Source: Arthrobacter silviterrae (GTDB lineage Bacteria > Actinomycetota > Actinomycetes > Actinomycetales > Micrococcaceae). From it: 64,000 nt of DNA. The stretch lies in contig NZ_JAAKZI010000026.1 of assembly GCF_011045165.1 (NCBI RefSeq), positions 1 through 64,000 on the forward strand. The letters are read 5' to 3'. The position numbers were made by a program, and so were the translations under genes. Of the stretch, positions 34,026-49,481 are shown one piece after another (within the stretch, counting starts at the first letter, position 1; every line of letters starts with the position of its first letter). The notes under the pieces are model-generated. The model was not told the DNA's origin, ran no database searches, and saw nothing but the letters and a program-made list of their open reading frames with translations.

Positions 34026-34104
34026 TTGTTCCTCCTTGCACCGCAGTCTCGAGTCATGAAGCGAAGTGATCACGCGGTAGATCTACCACTCCACTCACAA
34101 TTCA

Positions 34105-34119
34105 GTATACTGTATACAG
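34105..34119. promoter_or_regulatory. GntR operator 1 (CTGTATACAG) in the divergent gap
   Basis: Overlapping palindromes: GTATAC-T-GTATAC (34105-34117) and CTGTATACAG (34110-34119). A -10-like TATACT (34106-34111) for the plus-strand operon is embedded in it, so binding would block initiation and, by position, autoregulate the gntR gene. Confidence 0.75.
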
Positions 34120-34137
34120 AAGTGAAGGGGTACTTGT

Positions 34138-35388
34138 ATGGACATTGTTAGTGTAGGGCTCATCGTCAATCCGATCGCCGGACTCGGCGGCCCGTCGGGG
34201 CAAAAAGGCAGCGACGCCGCAGATATCCGTGAAATTGCGCGCCGTTCCGGCTACTCATGCACGTCTCCCGCCCGGGCGCGCCGCGCCGTTGCCCAGCTAT
34301 CCGCACAGCTGGAACGCACGGGCCGCCGCCTCCGCCTGTTGACGGGGCCGGGGGCGCTGGGTGAGGACGCAGCCCGCGGACTGTGCACCACCACCGTGCT
34401 GGCCGGCGACGCAGCCGGCAGCCCAGCCACCGACGTCTCAGCCAATGACGGCGCAGCAAACGACGGCGACACCCCCGCCAGCGGCGTCAGCGGCACCAGC
34501 AGTGCGGGCGACACCCGCCAGCTGGCCCGGCTGATGGCAGGGGCCGGCGTGGACCTGATCCTCTTTGCCGGCGGTGACGGGACGGCCCGGGACGTGCTCG
34601 ACGCGGTTGGCGGGAGCGTCCCTGTGCTGGGCATTCCGGCCGGCGTCAAGATCTACTCGGCGGTATTCGCCCTCACGCCCACAGCCGCCGGATCGCTGGC
34701 GGCCGCCTGGCTTGCGGCAGGGTCCAGGGAGGTGGCCGACCGCGACGTGGTGGACATCGACGAGGAGCTGCTGCGGGCCGGCCTGGCCTCCCCCGCGCTG
34801 TACGGAACCCTCAGCGTGCCCGTGGACCCCAGCCGGCTCCAGGCACGCAAGGCCGCAACGCCGGCGTCGGACGCAAACGCGGTCGCAGCCCTGGCCCGGG
34901 CCTTTGTCCGTGGCATGGACCCCCGCAGCACCTACATCCTGGGCCCGGGCGGAACCACCCAGGCCATCGGCGCCGAACTTGGCCTGGCAACCACCCGGCT
35001 AGGCGTCGACGTGGTTCGGCGGGACGGGCTGCTTGCCGCCGACGCCGACTCGCACACCTTGGAGGCCATGCTGGACGCCGGGTTTGACGGCTCTCCCGCG
35101 GTGGTGGTCCTCACCCCCCTGGGCGGCCAGGGCTTCGTGGTGGGCCGCGGCAACCAGCAGGTCACCGCACGCATGCTCTCCCGGCTACCCCTCCAGATTG
35201 TCGCCACGGACGGCAAGCTCGCCTCGCTGGCCGGTCGTCCGCTGTGGGTTGACTCCGGGAACGACGACGTCGATGCCCGGCTCAGCGGTTACGCGAAAGT
35301 TTTCACGGGTGCTGGCACCCACACGGTCTACCCGGTCCGCCGGGTGTTGGAAGAAACCTCAGGCAACACCACAACCAAGGAGTACTAA
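34138..35388 (+). CDS. ATP-NAD/AcoX-type kinase family protein
   Basis: A 416-residue protein of the ATP-NAD kinase/AcoX family. It opens VGLIVNPIAGLGGPSGQKGS; the nucleotide-binding GGDGT is at residues 145-149 (FAGGDGTARDVLDAVG), followed by VLGIPAGVKIYSAVFALTP. AcoX is linked to acetoin catabolism but has no settled reaction; NAD phosphorylation or phosphorylation of a small substrate is possible. Between about residues 87 and 124 there is an Ala/Asp/Ser/Gly/Thr-rich low-complexity insert that I do not expect from the family. ATG follows AAGGGG; the stop directly abuts the dehydrogenase start. Controlled by GntR operator 1. Confidence 0.85.
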   Translation: MDIVSVGLIVNPIAGLGGPSGQKGSDAADIREIARRSGYSCTSPARARRAVAQLSAQLERTGRRLRLLTGPGALGEDAARGLCTTTVLAGDAAGSPATDVSANDGAANDGDTPASGVSGTSSAGDTRQLARLMAGAGVDLILFAGGDGTARDVLDAVGGSVPVLGIPAGVKIYSAVFALTPTAAGSLAAAWLAAGSREVADRDVVDIDEELLRAGLASPALYGTLSVPVDPSRLQARKAATPASDANAVAALARAFVRGMDPRSTYILGPGGTTQAIGAELGLATTRLGVDVVRRDGLLAADADSHTLEAMLDAGFDGSPAVVVLTPLGGQGFVVGRGNQQVTARMLSRLPLQIVATDGKLASLAGRPLWVDSGNDDVDARLSGYAKVFTGAGTHTVYPVRRVLEETSGNTTTKEY

Positions 35389-36147
35389 ATGCGTTTGCAG
35401 GACAAGAATGCCATCATCACCGGCGGCGGCTCGGGAATCGGCCGCGCCACTGTCCTGGCCATGGCGGCCGAAGGCGCCAACGTGGCCGTCTTCGACATCA
35501 ACGAGGCCGCTGCCAAGGCTGTCGCGCAAGAGGCAGCCGCCTTGGGCGTGAAGGCCATTGGTGTGGCCGTCAACGTTGCCGACAATGACCAGGTCCAGGC
35601 CGGCGTGGCCCAGGTGGTGGAGGCCTTTGGCGGCGTGAACGTGCTGTTCAACAACGCCGGCATCATCCGCCGCGCCAACGTCCTGGAAACTTCCGTCGAG
35701 GACTGGGACCGCGTCATGGGCGTGAACGTGCGCGGGCCGTTCCTGCTGTGCAAGCACGTGGTTCCCCTCATGCAGGCGGCCGGCGGAGGTTCGATCGTCA
35801 ACACCGGCTCCGGCTGGGGCCTGAAGGGCGGCGGCGACGCCCTGTCCTACTGCACCTCCAAGGCTGCCGTCGTCAACATGACCCGCGCCCTCGCAATCGA
35901 CCACGGCCCGGACAACATCCGCGTCAACTCGGTCAACCCGGGCGACACCAACACGCCCATGCTGCGCGAGGAGGCCCGCCAGCTCTCGCAGGAGGAGCAG
36001 AGCTTCCTGGCCGAGTCCAACGACCGCCCCCTCAAGCGCATGGGCACGCCGGAGGAAATCGCCGAGGCCGTGGTCTGGCTGGCCAGCGACGCCAGCTCCT
36101 ACGTCACCGGCTCCGCCCTGGTGGTCGACGGCGGCGGCATCGCCTAA
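35389..36147 (+). CDS. Short-chain dehydrogenase/reductase (SDR)
   Basis: A 252-residue classical SDR. The NAD(P) motif is TGGGSGIG near residue 12 and an aspartate after strand 2 (VAVFDINEA) favours NAD(H). NNAGI is conserved, and the active-site YCTSKAA carries Tyr and Lys. The C-terminus GSALVVDGGGIA is standard. Homologues oxidise hydroxy groups of sugars, polyols or hydroxy acids; diacetyl/butanediol-type activity is one possibility given the AcoX-like neighbour. ATG directly follows the TAA of that gene, with AAGGAG upstream, so they are coupled. A strong terminator follows. Confidence 0.9.
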   Translation: MRLQDKNAIITGGGSGIGRATVLAMAAEGANVAVFDINEAAAKAVAQEAAALGVKAIGVAVNVADNDQVQAGVAQVVEAFGGVNVLFNNAGIIRRANVLETSVEDWDRVMGVNVRGPFLLCKHVVPLMQAAGGGSIVNTGSGWGLKGGGDALSYCTSKAAVVNMTRALAIDHGPDNIRVNSVNPGDTNTPMLREEARQLSQEEQSFLAESNDRPLKRMGTPEEIAEAVVWLASDASSYVTGSALVVDGGGIA

Positions 36148-36162
36148 AGTCCGCACACAGGC

Positions 36163-36206
36163 AAAAGGGGCCCGCCCCGGAGTGATCCGGGGCGGACCCC
36201 TTTTTG
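36163..36206 (+). terminator. Intrinsic terminator after SDR gene
   Basis: AAAAGGGG-CCCGCCCCGGA pairs with TCCGGGGCGG-CCCCTTTTT around GTGA. Long stem with a T-run, 15 bases after the stop; it separates the plus-strand pair from the minus-strand operon ahead. Confidence 0.9.
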
Positions 36207-36275
36207 GCGTAAGTGCCTCGGGTGAGTGCTGGGCGCAAGTGTTTGGCGCAAGTGCTTGGCGCACGTGCCAGGCTG

Positions 36276-38009
36276 TCAGCCGTCCCTGTCTGCCAGCCAC
36301 ACCGCCAGGTCCAGGAACAATGCCGCTGACCAGCCGAACCCGGTGGTGGCGCCGGCTGCGCGGGCGCCCGTCTGCGGATTCCAGTATTCGTGGATGCCGC
36401 CGCTCTCGCGGACCATGTCGACGGTCCGCGCGGCCAGAGCCACGGCTTCGGCTTCCAGTCCGCTGCGCAGCAGCCCCTGGACCACCAGCCAGTTCACGTT
36501 CAGCCAAACGGGTCCGCGCCACATCCTGTCGGCATTGAACTCAGGCTCGGCCTGGGCGACTGTGGGCAGTGGCCAGGGCGCCCCCAGCCCGGCCGGATCG
36601 GCCAGCGACTGCCGCAAGGACTCCAGCACGGGTTCGGGCAGCCTGCCTGTCAGCAGCGGCATCAACGCAAACGGCGTGAGCGTGGTCCGCGTGCCGGACG
36701 GTGTCAGCGCCACAAACTGGCGGCGCCCCGCATCGTAGCGACGGGCCACCAGCCGTTCGGCAGTGGCATCAGCCAGGGTACGCTGCGCGGCAGCTTCCGC
36801 AGCGTCGCCGCGTTCGTCCGCCAGCTCCGCCATGGCGTCCAGCGCCCTGACCAGGTAGCTGGGGAGGTCGGGCGCAAACACCGGGCCGCCGTCGTCAAAG
36901 AGCGGCGAGTCATCCAGCCCTGAGGAATAGACATGCTCGTAGCCGGGCAGGCCGTCCGGGGAGGGCCGGGCGAACCACCAGCGGTGCAGCCTGTCCAGCC
37001 CCTCCCGCAGTTCCGCCTGCACCGAGCCGCCGCCAACCTCATCGACGGCGCGGGCAGCCCAGGCGGCCAGCGGCGGCTTCGTGATGGGCATGTCCGCCTG
37101 GACCACCATGGGTGAATCCGGGCCGTGGATCCGGGCCAGGGTGGCCAGGTCCCCCGGCGGCATGTCGGCCACGCAGGCCAGCGTGCCGCCGTCGTGCACC
37201 ACATCCGGCAGGCCGCCGTCGGGCGCCTGCTCGCCGAAAAACAGGCGGAGCTGGTCCGCGGCAAGCTGCGGGTCGCCGTGGCGCAGCCCGAAGCTGATGA
37301 AGTAGGAATCCCACTGCCACGCGGCAACGTAGCCCTGCTTGGACGGGATCACCGCCTCAATGTCCGGATGGGTGTCCAGGCGGACAATGTTGCTGGCCAG
37401 CAGCCACCAGGCGTAGCGGACCATTTCCAGGTCCGCGTCCCGGACGGCGGGAAGCCTGGCGAACCATTCCTGCCAGCGGGCGGACGCGGCCGCAAGGCAC
37501 TGCCCATGGCTGCCACGCACGGGCGTGGTGCGGACTGGGCCGCCAATGCGGACGCTCACGCTGCCGCCTGCCGGCAGCACGATGCGGGGGGCGCCGAAGG
37601 TGTCGCTGCCCTCCGTGCTGCACCAGCGGATCGGCGCGCCGTCCACCTCGGAGGCCGGCGCGCCGTCGCGGCCGGTGCCAAACGCCTCAAGCGCCACGGT
37701 TACCGGGTCGCCGTCGGCTGCCGCTCCGATGCTCAGCGTGTCCGCGTCTGCGAAGGTCAGCGAGGCCGCCCCGTGGGCAAAGGTGATGCCTTCGGGCCCG
37801 ACGGCGGTTACCTCCAGCAGCCTGCCGGTGGAGTCGTGCACGGCCAGCCGCCGCAGGTGGTTGCACCGGTCCGCGTGGCGCTCATAGACGGCACCGGCGA
37901 CCCGGAGCCCGCCGTCGGGGCGGGCAAAAATGAGCAGCCGCGAGCCCCTGTCCGTCAGCGGCACGGAGTCCAGGTCGATGAAGGCGCCGGCTCCGGGCCA
38001 GGAACGCAT
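36276..38009 (-). CDS. GH63/MGH1-like glycoside hydrolase
   Basis: A 577-residue enzyme with an N-terminal beta-sandwich (to about 190) and an (alpha/alpha)6 barrel. AAWQWDSYFISFGLRHGD contains the presumed general acid Asp234; NADRMWRGPVWLNVNWLVVQ and ESGGIHEYWNPQTG (glutamate base) match GH63 and glucosylglycerate/mannosylglycerate-hydrolase-like families. No signal peptide, so it acts on an imported alpha-glucoside or mannoside. Start ATG 38009 overlaps the stop of the upstream permease (TGATG). Last gene of the gcvPA-gcvPB-ABC operon. The substrate is open; glycosylglycerate-type compounds are one hypothesis from family membership. Confidence 0.82.
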   Translation of the reverse strand: MRSWPGAGAFIDLDSVPLTDRGSRLLIFARPDGGLRVAGAVYERHADRCNHLRRLAVHDSTGRLLEVTAVGPEGITFAHGAASLTFADADTLSIGAAADGDPVTVALEAFGTGRDGAPASEVDGAPIRWCSTEGSDTFGAPRIVLPAGGSVSVRIGGPVRTTPVRGSHGQCLAAASARWQEWFARLPAVRDADLEMVRYAWWLLASNIVRLDTHPDIEAVIPSKQGYVAAWQWDSYFISFGLRHGDPQLAADQLRLFFGEQAPDGGLPDVVHDGGTLACVADMPPGDLATLARIHGPDSPMVVQADMPITKPPLAAWAARAVDEVGGGSVQAELREGLDRLHRWWFARPSPDGLPGYEHVYSSGLDDSPLFDDGGPVFAPDLPSYLVRALDAMAELADERGDAAEAAAQRTLADATAERLVARRYDAGRRQFVALTPSGTRTTLTPFALMPLLTGRLPEPVLESLRQSLADPAGLGAPWPLPTVAQAEPEFNADRMWRGPVWLNVNWLVVQGLLRSGLEAEAVALAARTVDMVRESGGIHEYWNPQTGARAAGATTGFGWSAALFLDLAVWLADRDG

Positions 38010-38908
38010 CAGGAGCCGCCCATGCCGGACATGGCCATGGAGTTCAGGATCCGGCGGTTGCCGATCAGGAATGCGATCAGCATGGGCACGATGGAGATGG
38101 CCGACGCCGCCATGATTACGGAGTAGTTGATGCCCCCATATTGGCCGGTGAACTGGGAGAGCAGCAGCGGCACCGTGAACTGGTTTTCACTGTTGAGCAC
38201 AATCAAGGGCAGGAAGAAGTTGTTCCAGGCACCCAGCGCCACCACGATGGACAGGGCGGCAAGGCCGGGCTTGATGTTCGGCATGACAATGCTGAACAGG
38301 ATCCGCCAGCGGCCGGCGCCGTCCAGCCGGGCGGCCTCTTCCAGCTCCACGGGCAGCGAGCGGATGAACTGGCGGACCAGGAACACGGCGAAGGGGTTGC
38401 ACAGCACGGCCGGGATGATGAGCGCCAGGTGTGTGTCCACCCAGCCCAGCTTGGAGAAGATCATGTACAGGGGCACAATCGTCACCTGCTGCGGGACCAT
38501 TTGGGTGGCAAGAAACAGCACGAACAGGAATTTGCTGCCCTTGAACTCAATCCGCGCGAAGGCGTAGGCCGCCATGGAGGCCGTCACAATGGTGCCCGCC
38601 ACCGTCAGCACGCAGATGTAGATGCTGTTCCAGTACGCCAGCCCGAACGGGGCCGCGTTCCAGGCATCGGCATAGTTGCTGAAGTTCCACGGGTTGGGCA
38701 ACAGCCCCAGCGGGTTGCTGAGGATCTGCGGCAGCGACTTGAAGGACGTCAGCATCATCCACAGGAAGGGTGCCACCATCAGGAAGCCGCCCACCGCCAG
38801 GAGGAGGTGCAGCGCCAGGCCGGACAGCTTGATGCTGCCTTCCGTGCGGTTGCGGCGGCCCATGGCCGGGAGTGTGCGCTGCGGTGTTTTTTGCAGTGTG
38901 GTTGTCAC
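38009..38908 (-). CDS. Sugar ABC transporter permease (MalG-type)
   Basis: A 299-residue CUT1 permease. A basic N-terminus precedes LALHLLLAVGGFLMVAPFLW; six membrane helices follow. The EAA loop reads EEAARLDGAGRWRILFSIVM near residue 195. It pairs with the product of the gene five bases upstream. Downstream its stop overlaps the glycosidase start. No ATPase gene is present in the operon; a shared MsiK-type ATPase elsewhere is expected. Cargo presumably the glycoside cleaved by the GH63-like enzyme. Confidence 0.92.
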   Translation of the reverse strand: MTTTLQKTPQRTLPAMGRRNRTEGSIKLSGLALHLLLAVGGFLMVAPFLWMMLTSFKSLPQILSNPLGLLPNPWNFSNYADAWNAAPFGLAYWNSIYICVLTVAGTIVTASMAAYAFARIEFKGSKFLFVLFLATQMVPQQVTIVPLYMIFSKLGWVDTHLALIIPAVLCNPFAVFLVRQFIRSLPVELEEAARLDGAGRWRILFSIVMPNIKPGLAALSIVVALGAWNNFFLPLIVLNSENQFTVPLLLSQFTGQYGGINYSVIMAASAISIVPMLIAFLIGNRRILNSMAMSGMGGS

Positions 38909-38913
38909 GTGTT

Positions 38914-39852
38914 TCAGCTTTCGTAGTGCACGAACCGGCGCTGCAGGCCAAGCTGCACGGCGGTGACCACCAGGGTCAGGACGAGCAGGATGATGGACGC
39001 CGCGCTGGCCATTCCGAACTGGAAGTGGCGGAAGCCCTCGTCGTAGATCTGGTAGACGATGGTCCGGGCAGAATTGTCCGGACCGCCGTTCTTCGTGAGG
39101 ACAAAGACCACGTCAAAGGTTTGGAAGGAACTGATCACGGCCACCACGGTGGAGAAGAAGACAACGGGCGACAGGAGCGGCAGCCGGATCGCCATCATGG
39201 TGCGAAAGGCCCCCGCCCCGTCCACGCGTGCCGCTTCAAGGACGTGTGGATTGATTCCCTGCAGGCCGGCCAGGAAAATGATCACGTTCAGGCCCAGGGA
39301 TGACCAGATGGTCACGATGGAGACGGCCGCCAGCACAAAGTGCGGGTCCCCCAGCCAATCCGGCCCGGGAATGCCAAACACCTTCGAGAACGCCTGGTTC
39401 AGGGGCCCGTCGGCACGCAGGATCTGCTGCCACACCAGTGAGATGGCGATGGAGCTGGTCATGACCGGGGCAAAGTAGAGCAGCAGGTAGCCAGTGCGCC
39501 CGCGCAGCTTGTCCAGTGCGACGGCGATCAGCAGTGACAGCGCCAGCCCCACGGGGACGGTGATGAGCGCCAGCACCAGCGTGTTGATGATGGAGCGCAG
39601 GAACACGGGGTCGGCAAGTTCCGCCTGGAAGTTTGCGAACCCCACCCAGGTCAGCTGGGTCAGCCCGTCCCACTGGGCGAATGCCAGGACCAGCCCGACG
39701 GCGAACGGCAGCAGCACGAAGCCGCACATGCCTATCAGCTGGGGGCTGACGAAGACCAGGCCCCACCAGCGGTCGCGCTTGCGCCAGCTCGCCTCCCCGC
39801 GCTCCACCGGGGGCGCATCCGGCGTGCGGGTTTTGGCCAGGACAGCGGTCAC
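38914..39852 (-). CDS. Sugar ABC transporter permease (MalF-type)
   Basis: A 312-residue permease with six helices; the first is WWGLVFVSPQLIGMCGFVLL. The EAA motif reads EAARVDGAGAFRTMMAIRLP near residue 210, and KNGGPDNSARTIVYQIYDEG is the typical loop of UgpA/MalF relatives. It starts four bases after the binding-protein stop. Together with the following permease it forms the import channel. Regulation as for the whole operon, by the GntR operator at 44189-44204. Confidence 0.92.
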   Translation of the reverse strand: MTAVLAKTRTPDAPPVERGEASWRKRDRWWGLVFVSPQLIGMCGFVLLPFAVGLVLAFAQWDGLTQLTWVGFANFQAELADPVFLRSIINTLVLALITVPVGLALSLLIAVALDKLRGRTGYLLLYFAPVMTSSIAISLVWQQILRADGPLNQAFSKVFGIPGPDWLGDPHFVLAAVSIVTIWSSLGLNVIIFLAGLQGINPHVLEAARVDGAGAFRTMMAIRLPLLSPVVFFSTVVAVISSFQTFDVVFVLTKNGGPDNSARTIVYQIYDEGFRHFQFGMASAASIILLVLTLVVTAVQLGLQRRFVHYES

Positions 39853-39856
39853 CCGG

Positions 39857-41152
39857 TCAAACCGCCTTTTGCATCAGCTTGGACACGGCCGTGATGGTGT
39901 CGGCCGGGCTGGTCTTGCCCTGGTACATGCCGAGCATGGCCGTGCTGACGTCGGAGGAGAGCCCGGGCACCTTGGCCTCGACGGCAAAGTCCTCGAAGCC
40001 TGCACTGGTCATGTCCAGGAAGGACTTGGCGTGGGCCGGATAGTTGCCGTCCAGGACCACCGAATCGGCGCCTTTGACCGAAGGGACGGCATTGCCGCCG
40101 TCGGCCAGGCGAAGGGTCTGGCCCTTGGCGCTGAGGAAGTCCCCCACAAACGTCTTGGCCGCATCGGCAGCCTTAGTTTTGGCGTTGATGACCAGGTACG
40201 ACGCTGCCACGCCGCTGCTGCCGGGCTTGCCGGAAACGGTGGGCCACGGCGCGATGTCGTAGTCGTCCTTGCTGCCCGATTGCTGGGCGGTGGCAATGCC
40301 GTAGCGCCCCTGGACGTAGAAGCCCGCCTTGTGGGATACAAACAGGCTGTCCGCCCCGGAACCGTCCGGCAGGGTGTCCGCCACGGTGAAGGACTTGCTG
40401 GTGAAGCCGTCGGCCAGCGACTTGATGGCGGCTACGCTCTTGGGGTCCTCCGGCAGGACGAACTTTCCGGCCGCGTCGAAGACCTGGCCGCCGTTGGCCG
40501 CCACCCAGCTCCAGTGCGTGGACCAGTAGTTCCAGAACATGGCCCCGTGCAGGCCCTTGGCCGCGAGCTTGGCGCACATGCCCAGGAAGGTCTCAATGGT
40601 CCAGATGCCGGCAGCAGCCAGGTCGGCGGGATTTTCGGTGATGCCGGCCGCGGCCAGGGCCTTTTTGTCGAACCAGAACACGTCCGGGTTGCAGTCGTTG
40701 GGCAGGGCAAAGAGGCCCTTGTCCGTCTTGCCGGCGCCAAACAGGGCCGGGTTGAAGTCAGCAAGCTTGACCTTGGCGTCCGCGCCGTCCACCACGGGGG
40801 TCAGGTCCATGAGCACGCCGGAGGAGACGAACTTGCCGATGTAGTCATCGCCCACGTAGAACACGTCCGGTGCGGTGCCGGAGGTAAGCTGGGTCAGCAG
40901 CTTGGAGTGGTAGTCCGAGTAGGACGGCACCATCTGCAGGGTGGCCGTGATGGTGGGGTGGTCCGTCTTGAACTGCGCGTTGAACTTCTTGAAGCGCTGT
41001 CCTTCCTCCGGGGTGCCCCAGGTGGACCAGGTGATTTTGGCTGAGGATCCTGCGGCGCCGCCGGACTGGCCGCAGGCTGTGGTGGCCAGCAGGGCGCCGA
41101 CGCCCAAGGCCCCTGCGAAGAAATTCCGGCGGCTGAAGGTGTTGCTGTTCAC
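39857..41152 (-). CDS. Sugar-binding lipoprotein with Tat signal (ABC importer)
   Basis: A 431-residue SBP_bac_1-type protein. GTG 41152 starts VNSNTFSRRNFFAGALGVGA, a twin-arginine signal (SRRNFF) that ends in a lipobox-like TTAC, so it is exported folded and lipid-anchored. GGAG lies seven bases upstream. The body shows WSTWGTPEEGQRFKKFNAQF, DVFWFDKKALAAAGI and VQGRYGIATAQQSGS, typical of CUT1 binding proteins. It follows gcvPB by 41 bases in the same operon. The ligand is presumably a glycoside; unusual is the coupling to glycine-decarboxylase genes. Confidence 0.9.
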   Translation of the reverse strand: MNSNTFSRRNFFAGALGVGALLATTACGQSGGAAGSSAKITWSTWGTPEEGQRFKKFNAQFKTDHPTITATLQMVPSYSDYHSKLLTQLTSGTAPDVFYVGDDYIGKFVSSGVLMDLTPVVDGADAKVKLADFNPALFGAGKTDKGLFALPNDCNPDVFWFDKKALAAAGITENPADLAAAGIWTIETFLGMCAKLAAKGLHGAMFWNYWSTHWSWVAANGGQVFDAAGKFVLPEDPKSVAAIKSLADGFTSKSFTVADTLPDGSGADSLFVSHKAGFYVQGRYGIATAQQSGSKDDYDIAPWPTVSGKPGSSGVAASYLVINAKTKAADAAKTFVGDFLSAKGQTLRLADGGNAVPSVKGADSVVLDGNYPAHAKSFLDMTSAGFEDFAVEAKVPGLSSDVSTAMLGMYQGKTSPADTITAVSKLMQKAV

Positions 41153-41193
41153 GGGGGTACTCCTTGGTCGTTGGTGCATGGTGGGGTGGGACC

Positions 41194-42756
41194 TTAGTTG
41201 CTCAGGTGCTTCTTTTGGTATGCGCGCCACGTGATGGCCCAGCGGGCCGGATCATTCAGGTCGTCGTGGTGGATGTGGTGCACCGTTTGGTTGTGCGGGG
41301 CGGTGCGGACAATCTCCGGGTTGGTGCGGGCCTCCCCGGCAACATGGGCCAGGACCGCCACGTATTCGTCGATCTCCGACTTGGAGTAGGACTCCGTGGG
41401 TTCCAGCGTGAACGGCTGCGGCACCAGGTAGGGGTGGTGGCTGGTCCAGTAGTGCATGCCGAAGTCGGACATGCGGATGCCGATCTCCTCGCTGCTGACG
41501 CCGGTTTCCTCAAAGAGTTCCTGCCAGGAATACCTGACCTGTTCGATGCGCCGCTTGCCTTCCGCGTAGGGTGCGGAGGCTCCGGGGATCTCCAGGACCT
41601 TGGCCAGCAGGTAGTTGTTGTTGAGCACCGCGGTTTCGGCAACCTGGCGCAGGCCGTCGGCGCCGAGGGCCATGATCCAGGCGTAGGCGCGGACCACGTT
41701 GGGGGCGACACCGAAGAACGGGGCCACCGTCCCGACGGACTGCGGGTGGTTGTGGTTGACGGTGAAAGTCTCCCCCACCTTTTCGATGGTCGGACCGGGC
41801 AGGAAGGGGACCAGTTTCTCCGAGACGCAACTGGCGCCGGCTCCGGGCCCGCCGCTGGCGTGCGGGGTGCTGAACGTCTTGTGCAGGTTGAAGTGGCACA
41901 GGTCAAAGCCGGCGTCGGAGGCCCTGGTGATGCCCAGGATGCCGTTCGCGTTGGCCTGGTCGTAGGCAGCCAGCCCGCCCACCTCGTGGACAATGTCGAC
42001 AAACTCGCGGATCTTGGCGTTGTAGATGCCGGTGTCTTCGGGGTTGGTGATCATGAGGGCCGCGGTGCGCGGGGAGACGGCGGCACGCAGGGCGTCGATG
42101 TCTGGGTAGCCGTTGGCGTCGGGCATCAGCGTGATGACCTTGTAGCCGGCAGCCTTGGCGCAGGCGGCGTTGGAGGGGTGGGAGAAGATGGTGGTGATGA
42201 CCTCGTCACGCACCCCGCCGTCGCCGTTGGCCTCGTGGTAGGCGCGGATCATGGCGATGTTGGCCCAGATGGCGGCCGAACCGCCCTGGGTCTGCAGGCT
42301 GACCCGGGCCATGCCGGAGATCTCGGCCAGCAGCCGCTCCGTGCGCCAGAAGATTTCCAGCACGCCCTGGATGCTGGCCTCGTCCTGGTGCGGGTGGACG
42401 TCCATCAGCTTCGGCGTGCGGATGATGGTCTCGTTGACCTTGGGGCTGTACTTCATGGTGCAGGTGCCCTGGCCAATGTCGATGTTGAAGTCGGCGCCGA
42501 GATTTTCCTGGCTGATGCGCAGGTAGTGGCGGACCACGCGCATCTGGGCGAGTTCGGGCAGGGCCGGGGCGTCCGAACGCCGCAGCGGGGCCAGGCGGTC
42601 CTCGCGCAGGGCGAGTGCGTCCACGGCGGCCGGTTCGGGCTGCTGGACTAGGATGCCGCGTTCGCCGGGGGTGCTCAGTTCGAAAATGATCGGCTCGTCC
42701 CAGCGTGCCTGGTGAAAGCGGCGCAGGGCGGGCTTGGGTGCAACGGGAAGTGCCAT
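41194..42756 (-). CDS. gcvPB: Glycine dehydrogenase (decarboxylating) subunit 2-like
   Basis: A 520-residue PLP enzyme of the GcvPB family. RFHQARWDEPIIFELSTPGE and NIDIGQGTCTMKYSPKVNE are the N-terminal hallmarks. The PLP lysine is Lys293 in CHFNLHKTFSTPHASGGPGA (consensus NLHKTFSTPHGGGGPG; two glycines replaced by Ala-Ser). With subunit 1 it would decarboxylate glycine, or a related amino acid, onto a lipoyl H-protein. No gcvT, gcvH or lipoamide dehydrogenase is nearby, so partners must come from elsewhere or the reaction differs. It starts two bases after the subunit-1 stop behind AAGGAG. The transport neighbours are not the usual context. Confidence 0.9.
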   Translation of the reverse strand: MALPVAPKPALRRFHQARWDEPIIFELSTPGERGILVQQPEPAAVDALALREDRLAPLRRSDAPALPELAQMRVVRHYLRISQENLGADFNIDIGQGTCTMKYSPKVNETIIRTPKLMDVHPHQDEASIQGVLEIFWRTERLLAEISGMARVSLQTQGGSAAIWANIAMIRAYHEANGDGGVRDEVITTIFSHPSNAACAKAAGYKVITLMPDANGYPDIDALRAAVSPRTAALMITNPEDTGIYNAKIREFVDIVHEVGGLAAYDQANANGILGITRASDAGFDLCHFNLHKTFSTPHASGGPGAGASCVSEKLVPFLPGPTIEKVGETFTVNHNHPQSVGTVAPFFGVAPNVVRAYAWIMALGADGLRQVAETAVLNNNYLLAKVLEIPGASAPYAEGKRRIEQVRYSWQELFEETGVSSEEIGIRMSDFGMHYWTSHHPYLVPQPFTLEPTESYSKSEIDEYVAVLAHVAGEARTNPEIVRTAPHNQTVHHIHHDDLNDPARWAITWRAYQKKHLSN

Positions 42757-42758
42757 AG

Positions 42759-44129: not shown

Positions 44130-44188
44130 GGATTCACCTCAGGTGTTGTGGCGGCCGGGCCGCCTCATGGAGCGATACTTCGTTTTGC

Positions 44189-44204
44189 ATTCTGTATACA
44201 GAAT
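44189..44204. promoter_or_regulatory. GntR operator 2, perfect 16-bp palindrome
   Basis: ATTCTGTATACAGAAT is fully self-complementary and contains the CTGTATACAG core shared with the sites at 34110 and 49467. It directly abuts the -10 region of the gcvPA operon promoter, so binding would block RNA polymerase. Confidence 0.8.
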
Positions 44205-44233
44205 ACATTATGCCCATTGTGTGATGTGGTCAA
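44205..44233 (-). promoter_or_regulatory. Promoter of the gcvPA operon
   Basis: On the minus strand TTGACC (44228-44233) is followed by TAATGT (44205-44210) at 17 bases, or by CATAAT (44207-44212) at 15. The start point would fall inside the operator palindrome. Confidence 0.65.
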
Positions 44234-44254
44234 CATTTTCCGCCGGAAATGTTT

Positions 44255-44289
44255 CAGCCCGCCCCGGCGAAGACTGCCGGGGCGGGCTG
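44255..44289 (-). terminator. Perfect 13-bp inverted repeat after GH42 gene
   Basis: CAGCCCGCCCCGG pairs with CCGGGGCGGGCTG around a 9-base loop. It lies 31 bases beyond the GH42 stop and before the gcvPA promoter, separating the two minus-strand operons. No T-run follows. Confidence 0.65.
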
Positions 44290-44319
44290 GGGTGCCCGAT
44301 AACGGGCAAATGGTGGGGC

Positions 44320-46386
44320 CTAGACAGCCTGGAGGCGGTCACTTTCGGACACGACACGAACCGTGTCGGCGCGGTCATGCCGGACCACCAGGACTCCGCG
44401 GGCCGGGAGCGGCTGCAGTCCCCCGGCGCCAGGCGCCGGGCCGTCCCCGCCCACCAGGATGCTGGCCCGGGCCGGCACCGATACGTCCAGGGCCGCCGTC
44501 GAGCGGTTAAGCACGAAGGTAAACGATGTGTCACCGCTGCGGCGCACCACCACCTCAACATCAGGCCCGGCACCGTCGCGCAGGGGCACGCCCGCTTCGA
44601 CGAAGATCCGGCGCACCAGTTCCCGCAGCCCGGCGTCGGCCAGGCAGGCGCTCACGTACCAGGCCGCACCGCGGCCATGGTCCCGGACAGTGACTGCCGG
44701 GCGGCCGTCCAGCTCGCCGCCGGAGTAGCTGGCCACGGTGCGCGCCCCCGGCGCGTCAAGCCATTCGCTGACCGTGTGCACGGCGTGCAGGGCACCGTCC
44801 AGGCGCAGCTGCCCGCTTTCGCCGTCGGGCAGCGGCCAGACCTCGTCCACTTCCACGCCCAGCAGCCCGCGCAGCGGGCCGGGCGCCCCGCCCGGGTGGA
44901 CGTGGTCGTTTTCGTCAACAACGCCGGAAAACGCCCCGACGACGACGGTCCCGCCGGCGGCCGCATAATCGTCCAGCTGGGCGGCCAGGCCGGGCGTGGC
45001 GAGGTAGATATTGGGCACCAGCAGCACCCGGTAAGCGGACCAGTCCGCCCCGGCCCGGACCAGGTCCACGGTGGCGCCGAGGGTGAACGAGGCCCGGTGC
45101 CAGTCCCGTGCCTGGCCGATCCAGCTGAGCCGGTTGGTGGGCAGGGAATCCGGCGCGGCCAGGGCCCACATGTTGTCCCAGTCGCAGAGCATGGCAACGT
45201 GGGCCTCGACGCGGCTGCCCTTCAGGGCGCCGAGCTGCCGGAGTTCGGCACCGAGCAGGCTGCATTCCTGGAAGGTCCGGCTCGCCTCGCCGCGGTGGCC
45301 CAGGATGGCGGCGTGGAACTTCTCCGGACCGAATTTTGCCGCCCGCCACTGGAAGTACATGATGCCGTCGGCGCCGTGGGCCAGCGCCTGGTAGCTGTCG
45401 AGGCGCATCACGCCCGGCGCCTTGGGCACGTTGACGTCGCGCCAGCTGACGGCGCTGGCTGATTGTTCCAGGAGGAGCCAGGGCGCGCCGCCCTTGGCAC
45501 CGCGCATGAGTGCGTAGTTCAAGGATGCGTCAATGTGGGCGCCGGGGTCCGCGGGATCGGGGTAGGCGTCGTCGGTGACAATGTCCTCGGCGTCGGCAAA
45601 GGCAAAGTAGTCCAGCTCTCGCAGGATGGACATGAAGTTGGTGGTCACGGGCAGCTCCGGCGTCACCTCTCGGAGCACTTCCACCTCGGAGGTGAACAGT
45701 TCCAGCATGGCGGCCGAGGAGAACCGCTCGAAGTCCAGGTGCTGGGTGGAATTGATGGGGCCGGTGGACTCGCGTGGCGGTTCGATGGACTCGAAGTCAA
45801 GGTAGTGCTGTCCCCAGCAGCTGGTCCCCCAGGCCTCGTTGAGGGCGTCAATGCTCCGGTACTTGGTGCGCAGCCAGGTGCGGAAATGAACGGCGGAGGC
45901 GTCGCACCAGCAGCGGGGCACATGGTCGCCGTATTCATTGGACACGTGCCAGAGGCGCACGGCGGGGTGTTTTCCGTAGCGTTCGGCCATGGCGCGGGTG
46001 AGCCGGAGTGCGTAGCGGCGGAAGATGGGCGAACTGAAGCAATAGGCCTGCCGCGAGCCGAATTCCAGGTGTGTCCCGTCCGCCGTGACGGGCAGGATCT
46101 GCGGGTATTTGCGGATGAGCCAGGCCGGCGGCGTTGCCGTGGCGGTGGCCAGGTCGACGGCGATGCCGGCGCCGTGCAGCAGTTCAATGACGTCGTCCAG
46201 CCAGCCAAAGTCAAAGCAGCCTTCCACAGGCTCCAGCAGGGGCCAGGAAAAGACGGAGACGGTGATGAAATTGACCCCGGCCTGGCGCATCAGCCGAATG
46301 TCCTCCTCCCACACCTCCCGCGGCCACTGCTCCGGGTTGTAGTCTCCGCCGAAGGCGATTCCATCGAGTTCAAGCGTCCGGGTCAT
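44320..46386 (-). CDS. Beta-galactosidase, glycoside hydrolase family 42
   Basis: A 688-residue GH42 enzyme. GGDYNPEQWPREVWEEDIRL is the family opening; the acid/base is Glu151 in WHVSNEYGDH and the nucleophile Glu307 in LLLEQSASAVSW; CWCD and nearby cysteines suggest the GH42 zinc site. A trimerisation-type and a small beta domain follow. ATG 46386 overlaps the permease stop (ATGA); the frame upstream is an overlap artefact. Cytosolic, so it would hydrolyse beta-galactosides brought in by the importer of the same operon. Last gene of the third putative GntR-controlled operon. Confidence 0.93.
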   Translation of the reverse strand: MTRTLELDGIAFGGDYNPEQWPREVWEEDIRLMRQAGVNFITVSVFSWPLLEPVEGCFDFGWLDDVIELLHGAGIAVDLATATATPPAWLIRKYPQILPVTADGTHLEFGSRQAYCFSSPIFRRYALRLTRAMAERYGKHPAVRLWHVSNEYGDHVPRCWCDASAVHFRTWLRTKYRSIDALNEAWGTSCWGQHYLDFESIEPPRESTGPINSTQHLDFERFSSAAMLELFTSEVEVLREVTPELPVTTNFMSILRELDYFAFADAEDIVTDDAYPDPADPGAHIDASLNYALMRGAKGGAPWLLLEQSASAVSWRDVNVPKAPGVMRLDSYQALAHGADGIMYFQWRAAKFGPEKFHAAILGHRGEASRTFQECSLLGAELRQLGALKGSRVEAHVAMLCDWDNMWALAAPDSLPTNRLSWIGQARDWHRASFTLGATVDLVRAGADWSAYRVLLVPNIYLATPGLAAQLDDYAAAGGTVVVGAFSGVVDENDHVHPGGAPGPLRGLLGVEVDEVWPLPDGESGQLRLDGALHAVHTVSEWLDAPGARTVASYSGGELDGRPAVTVRDHGRGAAWYVSACLADAGLRELVRRIFVEAGVPLRDGAGPDVEVVVRRSGDTSFTFVLNRSTAALDVSVPARASILVGGDGPAPGAGGLQPLPARGVLVVRHDRADTVRVVSESDRLQAV

Positions 46387-47204
46387 CCCTTGACCGCCCC
46401 TCCCATAAGTCCTGATACGAATTGTTTTTGAAAAATGATGAAGACCAGCAGCAGTGGCAGGGTGGCCAGGAGGGAGCCGAGCATGAGGCCTGAATAGTCC
46501 ACCCGGGACAGCCCGATCATGGTGTTCAGGGCCACGGGCAGCGTGTACTTGTCCTCGGTGTTGAGCATCAGCAGCGGCCAGATGAAGGAGTTCCACTGGC
46601 TGATGAAGGTGTAGATCATCAGCGCGGCCAGCTGCGGGCGGGCCACCGGCATCACAATGCGGTAAAACGTCTTCAATTCCCCGGCGCCGTCAATGCGGGC
46701 CGACTCTATCAGGCTGTCGGGGAAGTCGAGGAATGCCTGGCGCATGAGGAAGATCCCGAAGGCGTTGGCCAGGAACGGCAGGATCAGCGCCTGGTAGCTG
46801 TTGACCCAGCCCAGGCTTGCCATCATCTGAAACAGGGGAACCAGCAGCACCTGCATGGGGATCATCATGGTCAGCAGCACCGCGCCAAGCACCAGGCCGC
46901 GGCCACGGAAGCGGAACTTGGCCAGCCCGTATCCGCACATGGCACTGACCACGCAGGAAAAAGCGGTATAGATGACGGCGACAACCAGGGAGTTGACCAT
47001 CACCTGGGAAAAGTTGGTCTCTTGCTGGAGCCGGGCCAGGTTTTTCCACAGCTCCCCGCCCGGCAGAAGGGGCAGCGGCGTGGCGAACAGGGCCGCCGTC
47101 GTATGCGTTGAAGCGATGACCATCCACAGGAACGGGATGATGCTCAGCGCTGCCCCGACCAGCAGTACCAGGTACACCGGAAGCCGTTTGAGCGTCTGTG
47201 TCAT
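46383..47204 (-). CDS. Sugar ABC transporter permease (MalG-type)
   Basis: A 273-residue CUT1 permease with six helices starting LPVYLVLLVGAALSIIPFLW. The EAA-type loop reads ESARIDGAGELKTFYRIVMP near residue 168 (Ser replaces the first Ala of EAA). It overlaps the upstream permease by four bases and the GH42 gene by an ATGA, so all are tightly coupled. It works with the product of 47201-48130; cargo presumably a beta-galactoside. Confidence 0.92.
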   Translation of the reverse strand: MTQTLKRLPVYLVLLVGAALSIIPFLWMVIASTHTTAALFATPLPLLPGGELWKNLARLQQETNFSQVMVNSLVVAVIYTAFSCVVSAMCGYGLAKFRFRGRGLVLGAVLLTMMIPMQVLLVPLFQMMASLGWVNSYQALILPFLANAFGIFLMRQAFLDFPDSLIESARIDGAGELKTFYRIVMPVARPQLAALMIYTFISQWNSFIWPLLMLNTEDKYTLPVALNTMIGLSRVDYSGLMLGSLLATLPLLLVFIIFQKQFVSGLMGGAVKG

Positions 47205-48130
47205 TTCTTTTCCTTCATGATCGCGAACTGCACCACGGAAACCACCGCGATGATGGCCACCAGCAGCCAGGCGATGGCGGAGGCATAGCCAAAGTCAAAC
47301 TGCTGAAAGCCCACCTTGTAGAGGTACAGCACGGGGGTCAGCGTGGCGTTGTTGGGCCCGCCGCCGGTCAGGATGAAGTTTTCATCAAACAGCTGGAGGG
47401 CGCCGATGGTGGAGGTGATGGAGCTGAAAAGGATGACAGGGCGCAGCTGCGGGATGACGATTTTGGTGAAAATGGCCCACCGGCCGGCGCCGTCAATGCG
47501 GGCGGCCTCGTAGAGCTCGGCGGGGATTCCCTGGAGTCCGGCCAGGATGATGACCATGTTGTAGCCGGTCCACCGCCACGTAATCGAGGCGATCAGGGCC
47601 ACGCGGGACCACGCTTCGCTGTTGAGCCAGTCCACCGGTGACATTCCCACCATGGCGAGCAACTGGTTGACGGCGCCGCCGTCCGTGGCGAGCATGACCC
47701 GGAAAACCAGGGAATACGCCACCAGGGTGGTTACCGCGGGCAGGAAGTGCATGGCACGGAATCCGGTGCGGAAACGCAGCCATGACTGGTTGAGCAGGTA
47801 GGCCAGTCCCAGCGCCGTACAGACCATGAGAGGGACCTGGATGACCAGGATGAGGCCAACGTTGAACAGGCTCTTGGCCACCAGCGGATCGTGGAACAGG
47901 CGCAGGTACTGTGCACCGCCCACCCACGTGGACTCACCGCCCGTGGTCGAGAAGAAGCTCTGCCACAGGGAAGACAGCAGGGGGTAGAGGAAGAAGATGG
48001 CGAAGAGCGCGACCGCCGGCAGGACAAACCAATAGCCGGGCCGGCTGCGGCCGGCGGTGGAGCGTGCCCCCGCCCGCCCGCCCGCGTTTGCGGACGGCCG
48101 GCGGGAGGGCCGCAGGAGTGTGCTGGTCAT
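47201..48130 (-). CDS. Sugar ABC transporter permease (MalF-type)
   Basis: A 309-residue permease. After a basic alanine/arginine-rich leader comes WFVLPAVALFAIFFLYPLLS and five further helices. The EAA motif reads EAARIDGAGRWAIFTKIVIP near residue 218. Four-base overlaps join it to the binding-protein gene upstream and to the second permease downstream. It forms the channel heterodimer of the GH42 operon. Confidence 0.92.
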   Translation of the reverse strand: MTSTLLRPSRRPSANAGGRAGARSTAGRSRPGYWFVLPAVALFAIFFLYPLLSSLWQSFFSTTGGESTWVGGAQYLRLFHDPLVAKSLFNVGLILVIQVPLMVCTALGLAYLLNQSWLRFRTGFRAMHFLPAVTTLVAYSLVFRVMLATDGGAVNQLLAMVGMSPVDWLNSEAWSRVALIASITWRWTGYNMVIILAGLQGIPAELYEAARIDGAGRWAIFTKIVIPQLRPVILFSSITSTIGALQLFDENFILTGGGPNNATLTPVLYLYKVGFQQFDFGYASAIAWLLVAIIAVVSVVQFAIMKEKK

Positions 48131-49440
48131 GGTTGCTGGGCGATCTTTCGCCCGGTGGCGGTGGCGATCTGCTCCGCCGCGGACTTCAATGCCGCGGCCG
48201 GGTCCTGATGGTTGAGCACGGCAGCCACGACGGCGCTGGAGACCGTGTCCCCCGCCTTGGCATTGTCACTGGTGTAGGTGATTGACGGGATCTTGGGTGT
48301 TTGGGCCGCGAAGAGCTCATAGACCTTTTCACCGCCGAAGTACGCCTGGGGTGCGTGGAACAGGGGCGCATCCAGGGCCGGAAGATAGGACGGGAACAGG
48401 CCCTCGTCCTTCATCATGGACACCTGGTTGTCCTTGTTGGCCAGCATGAACTTCACGAAGGAGCCGGCCAGCTGCGGGTTCTTGGCCTGGGTGGGGATGG
48501 CGAGGGTGGAGCCGCCGTCGTTGGAGGTCTGCGTGCCTCCGGCCGTGAAGGCAGGCAGCGGCACCACCGTGATCTTGTTGGCGAGCTCCGGCATTTCGCC
48601 TGTGAGCGTGCCGATCCACCACACGGCCTCGGGCATGACTGCGGACTTGCCGTTCTTGGTGGCCGTCACGCGCCCGTCCCAGCCCTTGACGTTGTCTAAC
48701 AGGCCCTTGTCGTTCATGGTCTTGATCAGCGCCAGTGCCTTGACGGCGGCAGCTGAGGTCAGGTTGATGGCGCCGTCGGGGGTGAAGATGCCCTGGCCCT
48801 GCTGCTGGAGCAGCATCTGAAACAGGCTGCCGGTCGAGAGGTCGGTGGAGATGAGGGCGTGGCCGGTGGCTGCCTTGACCTCCTCCCCCGCGGTGATCAA
48901 GTCATCCCAGGTGGCGAGCTTGCTGGGGTCAACACCTGCGGCCTTGAAGTAGTCGGTGCGCACGTAGAGCGCCACCGTGCCTGAATCCCAGGGCATGGAG
49001 AGGAGCTTGCCGTCGGCACTGGACGACGCCGAAATCTTGGAGGGGTCGAACTGGGCCTCATCCGCGCCGATGAGCGGCTTGAGGTCCGTGAACGCCTTGG
49101 GAAACTGGTGGATGTACGCCGGCATGTGGTCCGTTTCGACCGTAATGACGTCCGGCAGCCCGCTATTGGCCTGCAGTCCCACTGACATTTTGTCGTAAGC
49201 GTTGTCATAGCCGATGTCCACGACGTTGATGGTGGTGCCGGGATGTTCCTTCGTGTACTCCTTGGACAGCCGCTTGAGGGCCGTGGCGGCCACATCCCAG
49301 CTCCACACGGTAATTTGTCCGGACACGGCGGCGTCGCTGCTGAGCTTGGTCCCGGCGGCGGACGGCACACCGCCGGTGGCGCAGCCGGAGAGCAGGGCCA
49401 GGGCAAGCAGCGGCGCGGCAAGCTTCATTGCTTTGGGCAT
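48127..49440 (-). CDS. Sugar-binding lipoprotein (ABC importer, GH42 operon)
   Basis: A 437-residue CUT1-type binding protein. The signal peptide MPKAMKLAAPLLALALLSGC has a textbook lipobox (LLSGC), so it is lipid-anchored outside the membrane. Characteristic parts: ITVWSWDVAATALKRLSKEY, DVITVETDHMPAYIHQFPKA and MPWDSGTVALYVRTDYFKAA. Start ATG 49440 after AAGGAA; ATG 49428 is an alternative. First gene of the operon, with a promoter and GntR operator 25-70 bases upstream. Expected ligand: a galactoside or galactose-containing oligosaccharide. Confidence 0.9.
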   Translation of the reverse strand: MPKAMKLAAPLLALALLSGCATGGVPSAAGTKLSSDAAVSGQITVWSWDVAATALKRLSKEYTKEHPGTTINVVDIGYDNAYDKMSVGLQANSGLPDVITVETDHMPAYIHQFPKAFTDLKPLIGADEAQFDPSKISASSSADGKLLSMPWDSGTVALYVRTDYFKAAGVDPSKLATWDDLITAGEEVKAATGHALISTDLSTGSLFQMLLQQQGQGIFTPDGAINLTSAAAVKALALIKTMNDKGLLDNVKGWDGRVTATKNGKSAVMPEAVWWIGTLTGEMPELANKITVVPLPAFTAGGTQTSNDGGSTLAIPTQAKNPQLAGSFVKFMLANKDNQVSMMKDEGLFPSYLPALDAPLFHAPQAYFGGEKVYELFAAQTPKIPSITYTSDNAKAGDTVSSAVVAAVLNHQDPAAALKSAAEQIATATGRKIAQQP

Positions 49441-49466
49441 GAGGGTTCCTTGTGAGAGTCAAAATT

Positions 49467-49476
49467 CTGTATACAG
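49467..49476. promoter_or_regulatory. GntR operator 3 (CTGTATACAG)
   Basis: The exact 10-base core found at 34110 and 44192, here within GTACTGTATACAGAATT on the minus strand. It lies just downstream of the -10 of the GH42 operon, the same position as operator 2. Confidence 0.75.
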
Positions 49477-49481
49477 TACAC

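What the first reader, a model, noticed from the sequence alone, without database searches (positions are those of the whole stretch)
34105..49476. Three-operon regulon predicted by a shared CTGTATACAG operator next to an FCD-GntR gene
The identical 10-base palindrome occurs at the divergent gntR/AcoX gap, immediately downstream of the -10 of the gcvPA operon (as a perfect 16-mer) and just downstream of the -10 of the GH42 operon. Together these cover almost every gene in 16 kb. It points to one integrated pathway: import of glycosides, two glycosidases, a PLP decarboxylase pair, an AcoX-like kinase and a dehydrogenase.
Basis: partly seen in the sequence, partly recalled or inferred. Interest (0 to 1): 0.8.

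Follow-up and report, generated by a model that had tools for sequence, protein, structure and literature searches.

The report
Glycoside-catabolism regulon with orphan GcvPA/GcvPB
A repressor gene and three copies of its likely DNA switch mark out thirteen neighbouring genes that probably import a sugar-coated amino acid, perhaps one derived from collagen, and break it down in soil bacteria.

Summary
CTGTATACAG occurs three times in the 4.29-Mb genome, all at the named places. ATTCTGTATACAGAAT with up to 3 mismatches hits only these sites plus one overlapping half-site. Footprinting supports the regulon: all five sampled family relatives with a close gcvPA ortholog keep homologs of the thirteen genes and three TGTATACA sites before their operons. 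In 80 loci from GTDB genomes, 47 of 48 TGTATACA copies lie within 250 bp upstream of a cluster gene. No binding has been measured.

The GcvPA/GcvPB pair is probably not a glycine cleavage system. Two full-length gcvP genes with gcvH lie on other contigs, and the pair differs from both at many near-invariant positions. It usually travels with an AcoX/NAD-kinase-like protein and an SDR, and in most actinobacterial loci also with GH42, GH63 and sugar importers. The GH63 model's best PDB match is YgjK bound to Glc-alpha1,2-Gal.

My best reading, inferred rather than shown, is uptake and catabolism of Glc-alpha1,2-Gal-beta-O-hydroxylysine (collagen glycoside). A collagenase co-occurrence test was inconclusive.

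The parts
33369..34073 (-). gntR: FCD-type GntR regulator, 234 aa, presumed repressor
   Evidence: Pfam GntR 57 bits, FCD 50.7 bits; homologs in 59 of 80 named loci
34100..34119 (.). operator 1: two overlapping palindromes ATTCAGTATACTGTATACAG in the gntR/acoX gap
   Evidence: overlapping form also in L012-L016
34138..35388 (+). AcoX/NAD-kinase-like small-molecule kinase, 416 aa
   Evidence: Pfam NAD_kinase and NAD_kinase_C; GGDGT invariant in 35 of 35 aligned sequences; no PDB sequence match up to E=1
35389..36147 (+). SDR dehydrogenase, 252 aa
   Evidence: Pfam adh_short_C2 231.9 bits
36172..36195 (+). terminator-like hairpin between the convergent SDR and GH63 genes
   Evidence: 9 such hits in the region, shuffle mean 9.2
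36276..38009 (-). GH63 / MGH1-like glycoside hydrolase with N-terminal beta domain
   Evidence: Pfam PF22422 208.6 bits; AF2 pLDDT 91.4; best Foldseek match 3w7w YgjK with Glc-alpha1,2-Gal
38009..38908 (-). sugar ABC permease B1
   Evidence: Pfam BPD_transp_1
38914..39852 (-). sugar ABC permease A1
   Evidence: Pfam BPD_transp_1
39857..41179 (-). solute-binding protein 1 (start inferred at ATG 41179; longest ORF begins at 41230)
   Evidence: Pfam SBP_bac_1; start codon; nearest solved chain 6rjy, arabino-oligosaccharide-binding protein
41194..42756 (-). orphan GcvPB-like PLP subunit (PLP lysine K293)
   Evidence: NCBIfam GcvPB 569.8 bits
42759..44129 (-). orphan GcvPA-like subunit
   Evidence: NCBIfam GcvPA 445.6 bits
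44189..44204 (.). operator 2: perfect palindrome ATTCTGTATACAGAAT before gcvPA
44320..46386 (-). GH42 beta-galactosidase (start inferred at M71 of the 758-aa ORF, 46386)
   Evidence: ORF; Pfam GH42 488.3 bits; PDB beta-galactosidases
46383..47204 (-). sugar ABC permease B2 (273 aa)
   Evidence: relatives in L012-L016 at 83-95% identity; not given to Pfam
47201..48130 (-). sugar ABC permease A2 (309 aa)
   Evidence: relatives in L012-L016 at 78-93% identity; not given to Pfam
48127..49440 (-). solute-binding protein 2
   Evidence: PDB sugar-binding proteins 6q5g, 6h0h
49464..49479 (.). operator 3 before the SBP2-permeases-GH42 operon
   Evidence: TGTATACA at the same place in L012 (3440) and L013 (17609)

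Best explanation
This is a local regulon. The FCD-GntR dimer binds the 16-bp palindrome (core TGTATACA) at or just downstream of the -10 of three promoter regions and blocks its own gene and three catabolic transcripts: acoX-SDR; gcvPA-gcvPB-SBP1-permeases-GH63; SBP2-permeases-GH42. A pathway intermediate is presumed to release it. The ABC importers take up an intact glycoside. GH63 removes an alpha-1,2-linked glucose and GH42 the beta-linked galactose. The freed amine-bearing aglycone, most likely 5-hydroxylysine from collagen, is handled by the kinase, the GcvPA/GcvPB-like PLP enzyme and the SDR. My guess for the chemistry is phosphorylation of the hydroxyl, PLP-dependent elimination or C-C cleavage at the aminomethyl end, and NAD-dependent oxidation. 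Shown by sequence: gene set, operators and their conservation, conserved kinase and PLP motifs. Inferred: repression, substrate, order of steps. Sub-confidences: regulon 0.93; glycoside of type Glc-alpha1,2-Gal-beta-X 0.65; X = hydroxylysine 0.45. The figure below is for the regulon plus a pathway for such an amine glycoside; the rivals overlap with it and with each other.
For: Only three sites in the genome, all here. TGTATACA or close variants conserved before cluster operons. Homologs of all thirteen genes in 5 of 5 close family relatives and seven core families in 45 of 55 loci longer than 21 kb. In L128 (Anaerolineales MAG) the same core and an MGH1-like GH63 stand beside a GH2 LacZ-type beta-galactosidase and no GH42 was found, so beta-galactosidase plus GH63 can be kept by replacement. 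GH63 model: best match is YgjK complexed with Glc-alpha1,2-Gal; that disaccharide, beta-linked to hydroxylysine, is the collagen O-glycan (PMC8626586, PMC11012932, PMC8537180, passages). The pair is distinct from the host's two full-length GcvP proteins. The 10-mer ATGTATACAT at the -10 is bound in gel shifts by the FCD-GntR Atu1419 (PMC7797058, passages).
Against: No binding or expression data. The 10-mer also marks an FCD-GntR/prp-like locus in relative G050, and 56 of 197 family genomes hold it somewhere. In 23 of 51 gntR gaps there is no GTATAC, only a looser variant of the palindrome. The substrate rests on enzyme families: the nearest curated names for GH63 are glucosylglycerate hydrolase and alpha-glucosidase, far below cut-off, and by sequence the Thermus mannosylglycerate hydrolase scores above YgjK. 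The own genome has no M9 match; within genus g64 cluster carriers have M9 in 5 of 6 against 106 of 193, p = 0.17. Core clusters without these glycosidases in the kept flanks exist, mostly Chloroflexi and Acidimicrobiia MAGs, and other variants carry amidohydrolase, HCDH, aminotransferase or ALDH genes. L081 lacks the AcoX-like gene and L106 the SDR although flanking DNA is present. No aldehyde dehydrogenase, expected after the animal hydroxylysine route (recalled), is among the thirteen genes.
Confidence: 0.5

Rival explanations
1. The regulon is real, but the glycoside's aglycone is another amino alcohol or amino acid (for example a sphingoid-like or plant amine), with the same kinase, PLP and dehydrogenase logic.
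For: The kinase-PLP-dehydrogenase core occurs without the glycosidases in the kept flanks and beside amidohydrolase, HCDH, aminotransferase and ALDH genes, so it may serve several amine substrates. The AcoX-like protein also matches DAGK_cat.
Against: The combination GH63 (YgjK-like) plus beta-galactosidase fits Glc-alpha1,2-Gal-beta best, and hydroxylysine is the known amine carrier of that disaccharide. Sugar-type ABC importers argue against a hydrophobic substrate.
Confidence: 0.3
2. The SDR first oxidises the aglycone to an aminomethyl ketone; the GcvPA/GcvPB pair cleaves it through the aminomethyl carbanion it shares with glycine decarboxylase and hands the one-carbon unit to an H-protein of the normal glycine cleavage system. 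The AcoX-like protein has a lipoyl- or cofactor-related helper role, as AcoX is needed for acetoin dehydrogenase.
For: Two gcvH genes exist elsewhere in the genome. P. [quoted passage not shown] coli, and the protein is cited there as lacking acetoin, NAD and pyruvate kinase activity (PMC10943186, passages).
Against: No gcvH on this contig; near-invariant differences from the host's GcvP proteins; the kinase motif is invariant. That this protein is orthologous to P. putida AcoX was not tested.
Confidence: 0.15
3. Each operon is controlled by another FCD-GntR protein and the local gntR is incidental.
For: The TGTATACA core is shared by other FCD-GntR loci.
Against: Only three sites in the genome. 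Of 38 loci with a TGTATACA copy, 34 hold a gntR homolog; three of the other four are short fetched stretches (L100, L105, L113, 11.6-11.9 kb) and the fourth (L121) is a copy inside the AcoX-like gene.
Confidence: 0.04
4. The genes are a plain beta-galactoside/oligosaccharide utilisation cluster and the GcvPA/GcvPB pair is a normal glycine decarboxylase that happens to lie there.
For: NCBIfam names them GcvPA and GcvPB above cut-off.
Against: GcvPB is in 80 of 80 scanned loci by construction, but AcoX-like kinase (73), SDR (71), GH42 (60) and GntR (59) come with it. Two full-length gcvP genes with gcvH exist elsewhere.
Confidence: 0.06

Closest known systems
Atu1419, FCD-GntR (VanR group) of Agrobacterium fabrum (PMC7797058, passages seen)
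   Same: FCD-GntR; palindrome with TGTATACA core; sites overlapping or next to the -10; several sites close to its own gene
   Different: regulates hydroxycinnamic acid genes; operator flanks differ; the PDB entry 6z74 that I take to be Atu1419 (recalled) matches at 47.9 bits
Glycine cleavage P-protein, two-subunit type (1wyt)
   Same: both subunits homologous; PLP lysine and pyridine aspartate kept
   Different: no gcvH on this contig; 72 (PB) and 66 (PA) near-invariant positions differ from both host GcvP proteins; linked to kinase, SDR and glycosidases
E. coli YgjK (GH63), crystal with Glc-alpha1,2-Gal (3w7w)
   Same: two-domain GH63 fold, best Foldseek match, TMq 0.71
   Different: 18% identity, rmsd 7.4 over a long gapped alignment; 577 versus 760 residues
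AcoX of acetoin clusters (PMC10943186, passages seen)
   Same: described there as a predicted small-molecule kinase of unknown function, in a transcription unit with a dehydrogenase gene
   Different: here coupled to GcvPA/GcvPB rather than acetoin dehydrogenase; orthology not tested
Animal collagen-glycoside route: PGGHG (GH65; PMC8626586 passages), hydroxylysine kinase and phosphohydroxylysine phospho-lyase (seen only as a reference title; that paper is not held)
   Same: same proposed logic: remove glucose, remove galactose, phosphorylate, PLP lyase
   Different: GH65 rather than GH63; the kinase and lyase belong to other families (recalled); substrate here not shown

Membership tests
FCD-type GntR regulator | GntR wHTH plus FCD effector domain | tested here: met
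   Pfam GntR 57 bits (cut-off 27) and FCD 50.7 (cut-off 24.3)
FCD-type GntR regulator | short palindromic operator at own promoter and targets | tested here: met
   (sequence only; binding not testable here)
Glycine cleavage P-protein (GcvPA/GcvPB) | homology of both subunits and PLP-binding lysine | tested here: met
Glycine cleavage P-protein (GcvPA/GcvPB) | genomic link to gcvH | tested here: not met
   gcvH only on contigs C63 and C85, which also carry full-length gcvP
Glycine cleavage P-protein (GcvPA/GcvPB) | genomic link to gcvT | not tested
   no gcvT among the thirteen genes; no genome-wide gcvT search was made
Glycine cleavage P-protein (GcvPA/GcvPB) | glycine decarboxylation with H-protein | not testable with these tools
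   group-specific residues suggest another substrate
AcoX/NAD-kinase-like | NAD-kinase/DAGK domains with GGDGT | tested here: met
   Pfam; 35 of 35; Foldseek finds diacylglycerol kinases only at low TM, below unrelated glycosyltransferases by E-value
AcoX/NAD-kinase-like | orthology to characterised AcoX | not tested
GH63, YgjK-like alpha-glucosidase | GH63 fold and two catalytic carboxylates | tested here: inconclusive
   fold met; candidate acid D366 and base E541 invariant in 21 of 21, but their catalytic assignment is recalled
GH42 beta-galactosidase | GH42 catalytic and trimerisation domains | tested here: met
   Pfam 488.3 and 183.4 bits; PDB beta-galactosidases
Collagen hydroxylysine-glycoside catabolism | enzymes act on Glc-Gal-Hyl | not testable with these tools
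   collagenase co-occurrence inconclusive

The most novel reading that the evidence does not exclude
A widespread, undescribed bacterial pathway, most complete in actinobacteria with core-only versions in Chloroflexi, imports collagen-type Glc-alpha1,2-Gal-hydroxylysine, strips it with GH63 and a beta-galactosidase, and degrades hydroxylysine with an AcoX-family kinase and a repurposed split glycine-decarboxylase. Databases now annotate the latter as GcvPA/GcvPB. The pathway would give AcoX-family proteins an amine-catabolic role.
Probability: 0.38. Interest if true: 0.82.

Novelty: new variant of a known kind. Interest (0 to 1): 0.6.

Why it matters
The regulatory part is an ordinary kind of local repressor regulon, though unusually cleanly supported. 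The pathway part is not ordinary. It names a conserved gene set in which proteins that NCBIfam calls glycine dehydrogenase subunits are very probably doing something else. It pairs them with a kinase family whose role is an open question even in acetoin metabolism. It offers a testable candidate for how bacteria could use the hydroxylysine glycosides released from collagen. If true, many GcvPA/GcvPB annotations would need changing; one capped scan gave 564 relatives of the GcvPB alignment, of which I examined the best 80 and an unknown share of the rest may be true glycine cleavage proteins.

Tried and rejected
Normal glycine cleavage: set aside because two full-length gcvP genes with gcvH exist elsewhere and the pair is a distinct subgroup. 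gcvT was not searched.

Collagenase co-occurrence as a test of the collagen idea: M9 in 4 of 8 cluster genomes against 25 of 386 others in the class sample, p = 0.0014, but confounded by kinship. The 8 are own, G250, G363, G378, G464, G483, G516 and G554. G488 (3.3-kb contig) and G397, G415, G511, G584 (46-48% identity) were counted with the others; 2 of the 29 M9 matches were below the curated cut-off. Inside genus g64 the signal is 5 of 6 against 106 of 193, p = 0.17. Inconclusive.

Search for further conserved neighbours in the 80 loci found no family in more than 9 loci beyond the query set. The AcoX-like fold search gave low-TM matches only, glycosyltransferases first by E-value and diacylglycerol kinases with high probability over about 220 columns. 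Literature: none of the papers listed appeared from title and abstract start to link these genes to hydroxylysine, and one search found no paper holding both gcvPB and hydroxylysine. Nothing outside the held library was searched, and most hits of the broad searches were not listed. A glycosphingolipid reading was considered and not pursued (sugar importers, no lipid genes among the thirteen). The 80 loci are not independent and some repeat G-handle loci (equal contig lengths suggest L050 = L014's contig, L057 = L037's, L055 = L036's, L097 = L039's). ORFs were called mechanically, so limits of neighbour ORFs are approximate; several given to Pfam matched nothing.
Full report
Observation. CTGTATACAG occurs at 34110, 44192 and 49467 and nowhere else in the window (one mismatch adds none). 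In the whole genome of 4,287,170 bases it also occurs exactly three times, with 0 for the reversed control. The gcvPA copy is a perfect 16-base palindrome, ATTCTGTATACAGAAT. Allowing 3 mismatches in the whole genome gives only the three sites, plus an overlapping second palindrome at 34100.

Genes. Pfam and NCBIfam support FCD-GntR, an NAD-kinase/AcoX-like protein, an SDR, an MGH1-like GH63, two permeases and SBP1, GcvPB, GcvPA and GH42. The remaining three genes were not given to Pfam: SBP2 is identified by PDB matches and its two permeases by their place and conservation in relatives. The layout gives three catabolic transcripts plus gntR: acoX-SDR (right), gcvPA-gcvPB-SBP1-permA1-permB1-GH63 (left) and SBP2-permA2-permB2-GH42 (left). 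A terminator-like hairpin lies between the convergent SDR and GH63 genes (such hairpins are no more frequent in the region than in shuffles).

Footprinting inside the family. Of 197 family genomes drawn from a larger group, 8 have a gcvPA match at E <= 1e-50: the own genome, five at 76-90% identity (G056, G182, G050, G190, G141) and two at 52-53% (G007, G049). Within the own genus only G182 of the 10 other genomes listed has it, so the cluster is an accessory trait. In all five close relatives homologs of the thirteen genes are present and TGTATACA stands at three promoter regions. In G056 and G182 these are gntR/acoX, gcvPA and SBP2. In G050, G190 and G141 they are gntR/acoX, the divergent SBP2/gcvPA gap, and an SBP1-permeases-GH63-GH42 operon. 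The exact 10-mer is found somewhere in 56 of the 197 genomes, so it is not rare enough by itself. In G050 two further copies stand at the 5' end of an FCD-GntR gene that is followed by PrpD-like, PEP-mutase-like and citrate-synthase genes and faces an acyl-CoA-synthetase-type gene. Other FCD-GntR proteins therefore probably use the same core. The two distant relatives show no TGTATACA and none of the glycosidases in the fetched 20 kb, and have amidohydrolase, HCDH and PucR genes; GH63 was not found in their genomes at E <= 1e-20, GH42 was not searched there.

Footprinting across phyla. Tally of the 80: GcvPA 80, AcoX-like 73, SDR 71, GH42 60, GntR 59, GH63 56. Six of the 7 loci without AcoX-like gene and 8 of the 9 without SDR are stretches shorter than 12 kb; the exceptions are L081 and L106. 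Of 55 loci longer than 21 kb, 45 hold all seven families. TGTATACA occurs 48 times in these 1.51 Mb, against 0-31 for 35 other palindromes of related composition. 47 of the 48 lie within 250 bp upstream of a cluster gene. In 62 divergent gaps from 61 of the 80 loci (the other 19 have no such gap under my rule) the 16-mer is matched within 3 mismatches in 56 and within 4 in 61; shuffles reach 3 or fewer in 1 of 1240. In 23 of 51 gntR gaps there is no GTATAC; most of these, from Streptosporangium-, Nonomuraea- and Kitasatospora-type genomes, carry variants such as ATTCTGCATACAAAAT or ATTTTGAATACAAAAT at the same place behind TTGAC...TAT elements. The loci are related to each other, so these counts are not independent events.

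What the pathway is. The host has two full-length gcvP genes, each with a gcvH on the same contig. The GcvPB group keeps K293, D266 and much of the PLP motif but differs from both host GcvP proteins at 72 near-invariant positions, and GcvPA at 66 (81 and 73 sequences, 97% threshold). The pair is therefore best seen as an orphan subgroup with its own function, although NCBIfam names it GcvPA/GcvPB above cut-off. It usually travels with the AcoX-like kinase and SDR, less often with the glycosidases. In the Anaerolineales locus L128 the core and an MGH1-like GH63 stand beside a GH2 LacZ-type enzyme, and no GH42 was found.

Which glycoside. The GH63 model (pLDDT 91.4) matches YgjK best; the top entry is YgjK in complex with 2-O-alpha-glucosyl-galactose, TMq 0.71, ahead of mannosylglycerate and glucosylglycerate hydrolases, TMq about 0.5. 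A fold match does not fix the substrate, and by sequence alone the Thermus enzyme scores higher than YgjK (79.8 against 60.8 bits). GH42 is most like solved beta-galactosidases. Together these suggest Glc-alpha1,2-Gal-beta-X. That disaccharide on hydroxylysine is the collagen O-glycan, whose glucose is removed in animals by PGGHG (PMC8626586, PMC8537180 and PMC11012932, passages). Hydroxylysine, an amino acid with a hydroxyl beside an aminomethyl group, would explain a kinase, a PLP enzyme and a dehydrogenase downstream. This step is inference; the collagenase test does not decide it, and the own genome has no M9 match.

Mechanism of regulation. By eye the operators lie at or just after the -10, as for Atu1419, an FCD-GntR that binds ATGTATACAT at the -10 (PMC7797058, passages). 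Repression with release by an intermediate is the most likely mode. The gntR/acoX site is a double, overlapping palindrome in all five close relatives too.

Judgement. The regulon claim is supported as far as sequence can go. The regulatory design is ordinary; the repurposed GcvPA/GcvPB plus AcoX-like kinase pathway is the part worth following.

Noticed in passing
window 34100-34119: The divergent operator is two overlapping palindromes (AGTATACT and CTGTATACAG, 7 bp apart) also present in L012-L016, as if two dimers could bind.
   Followed up: partly
L128:13623-17018: In an Anaerolineales MAG a GH2 LacZ-type beta-galactosidase follows the GH63-GcvPAB-AcoX-SDR cluster; no GH42 was found there.
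   Followed up: partly
L101:11630-13498: An ORF with tricorn-C1 and peptidase-S41 matches lies between GcvPB and AcoX in a Chloroflexi MAG.
   Followed up: no
L044 (G584:C14), L017, L018: Other GcvPAB-AcoX variants stand beside HCDH, class-III aminotransferase, ALDH and CoA-transferase (L044) or HCDH, amidohydrolase and PucR (L017, L018): perhaps the same core chemistry on other amines.
   Followed up: partly
L058:5135-6127: An APH-family kinase (the family of animal hydroxylysine kinase, recalled) follows the SDR gene in an Acidimicrobiia MAG.
   Followed up: no
L022:5449-5521; L021:5546: CTGTATACAG also stands at an FCD-GntR gene next to PrpD-like, PEP-mutase-like, citrate-synthase and acyl-CoA-synthetase genes in relative G050 (L022); G141 (L021) has a copy in a similar-looking layout, but Pfam was run on L022 only.
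   Followed up: partly
L014:14912-16498, L015:15028-16614, L016:2549-4135: In three g23 relatives an Amidohydro_3 enzyme lies beside gntR within the regulon region.
   Followed up: partly
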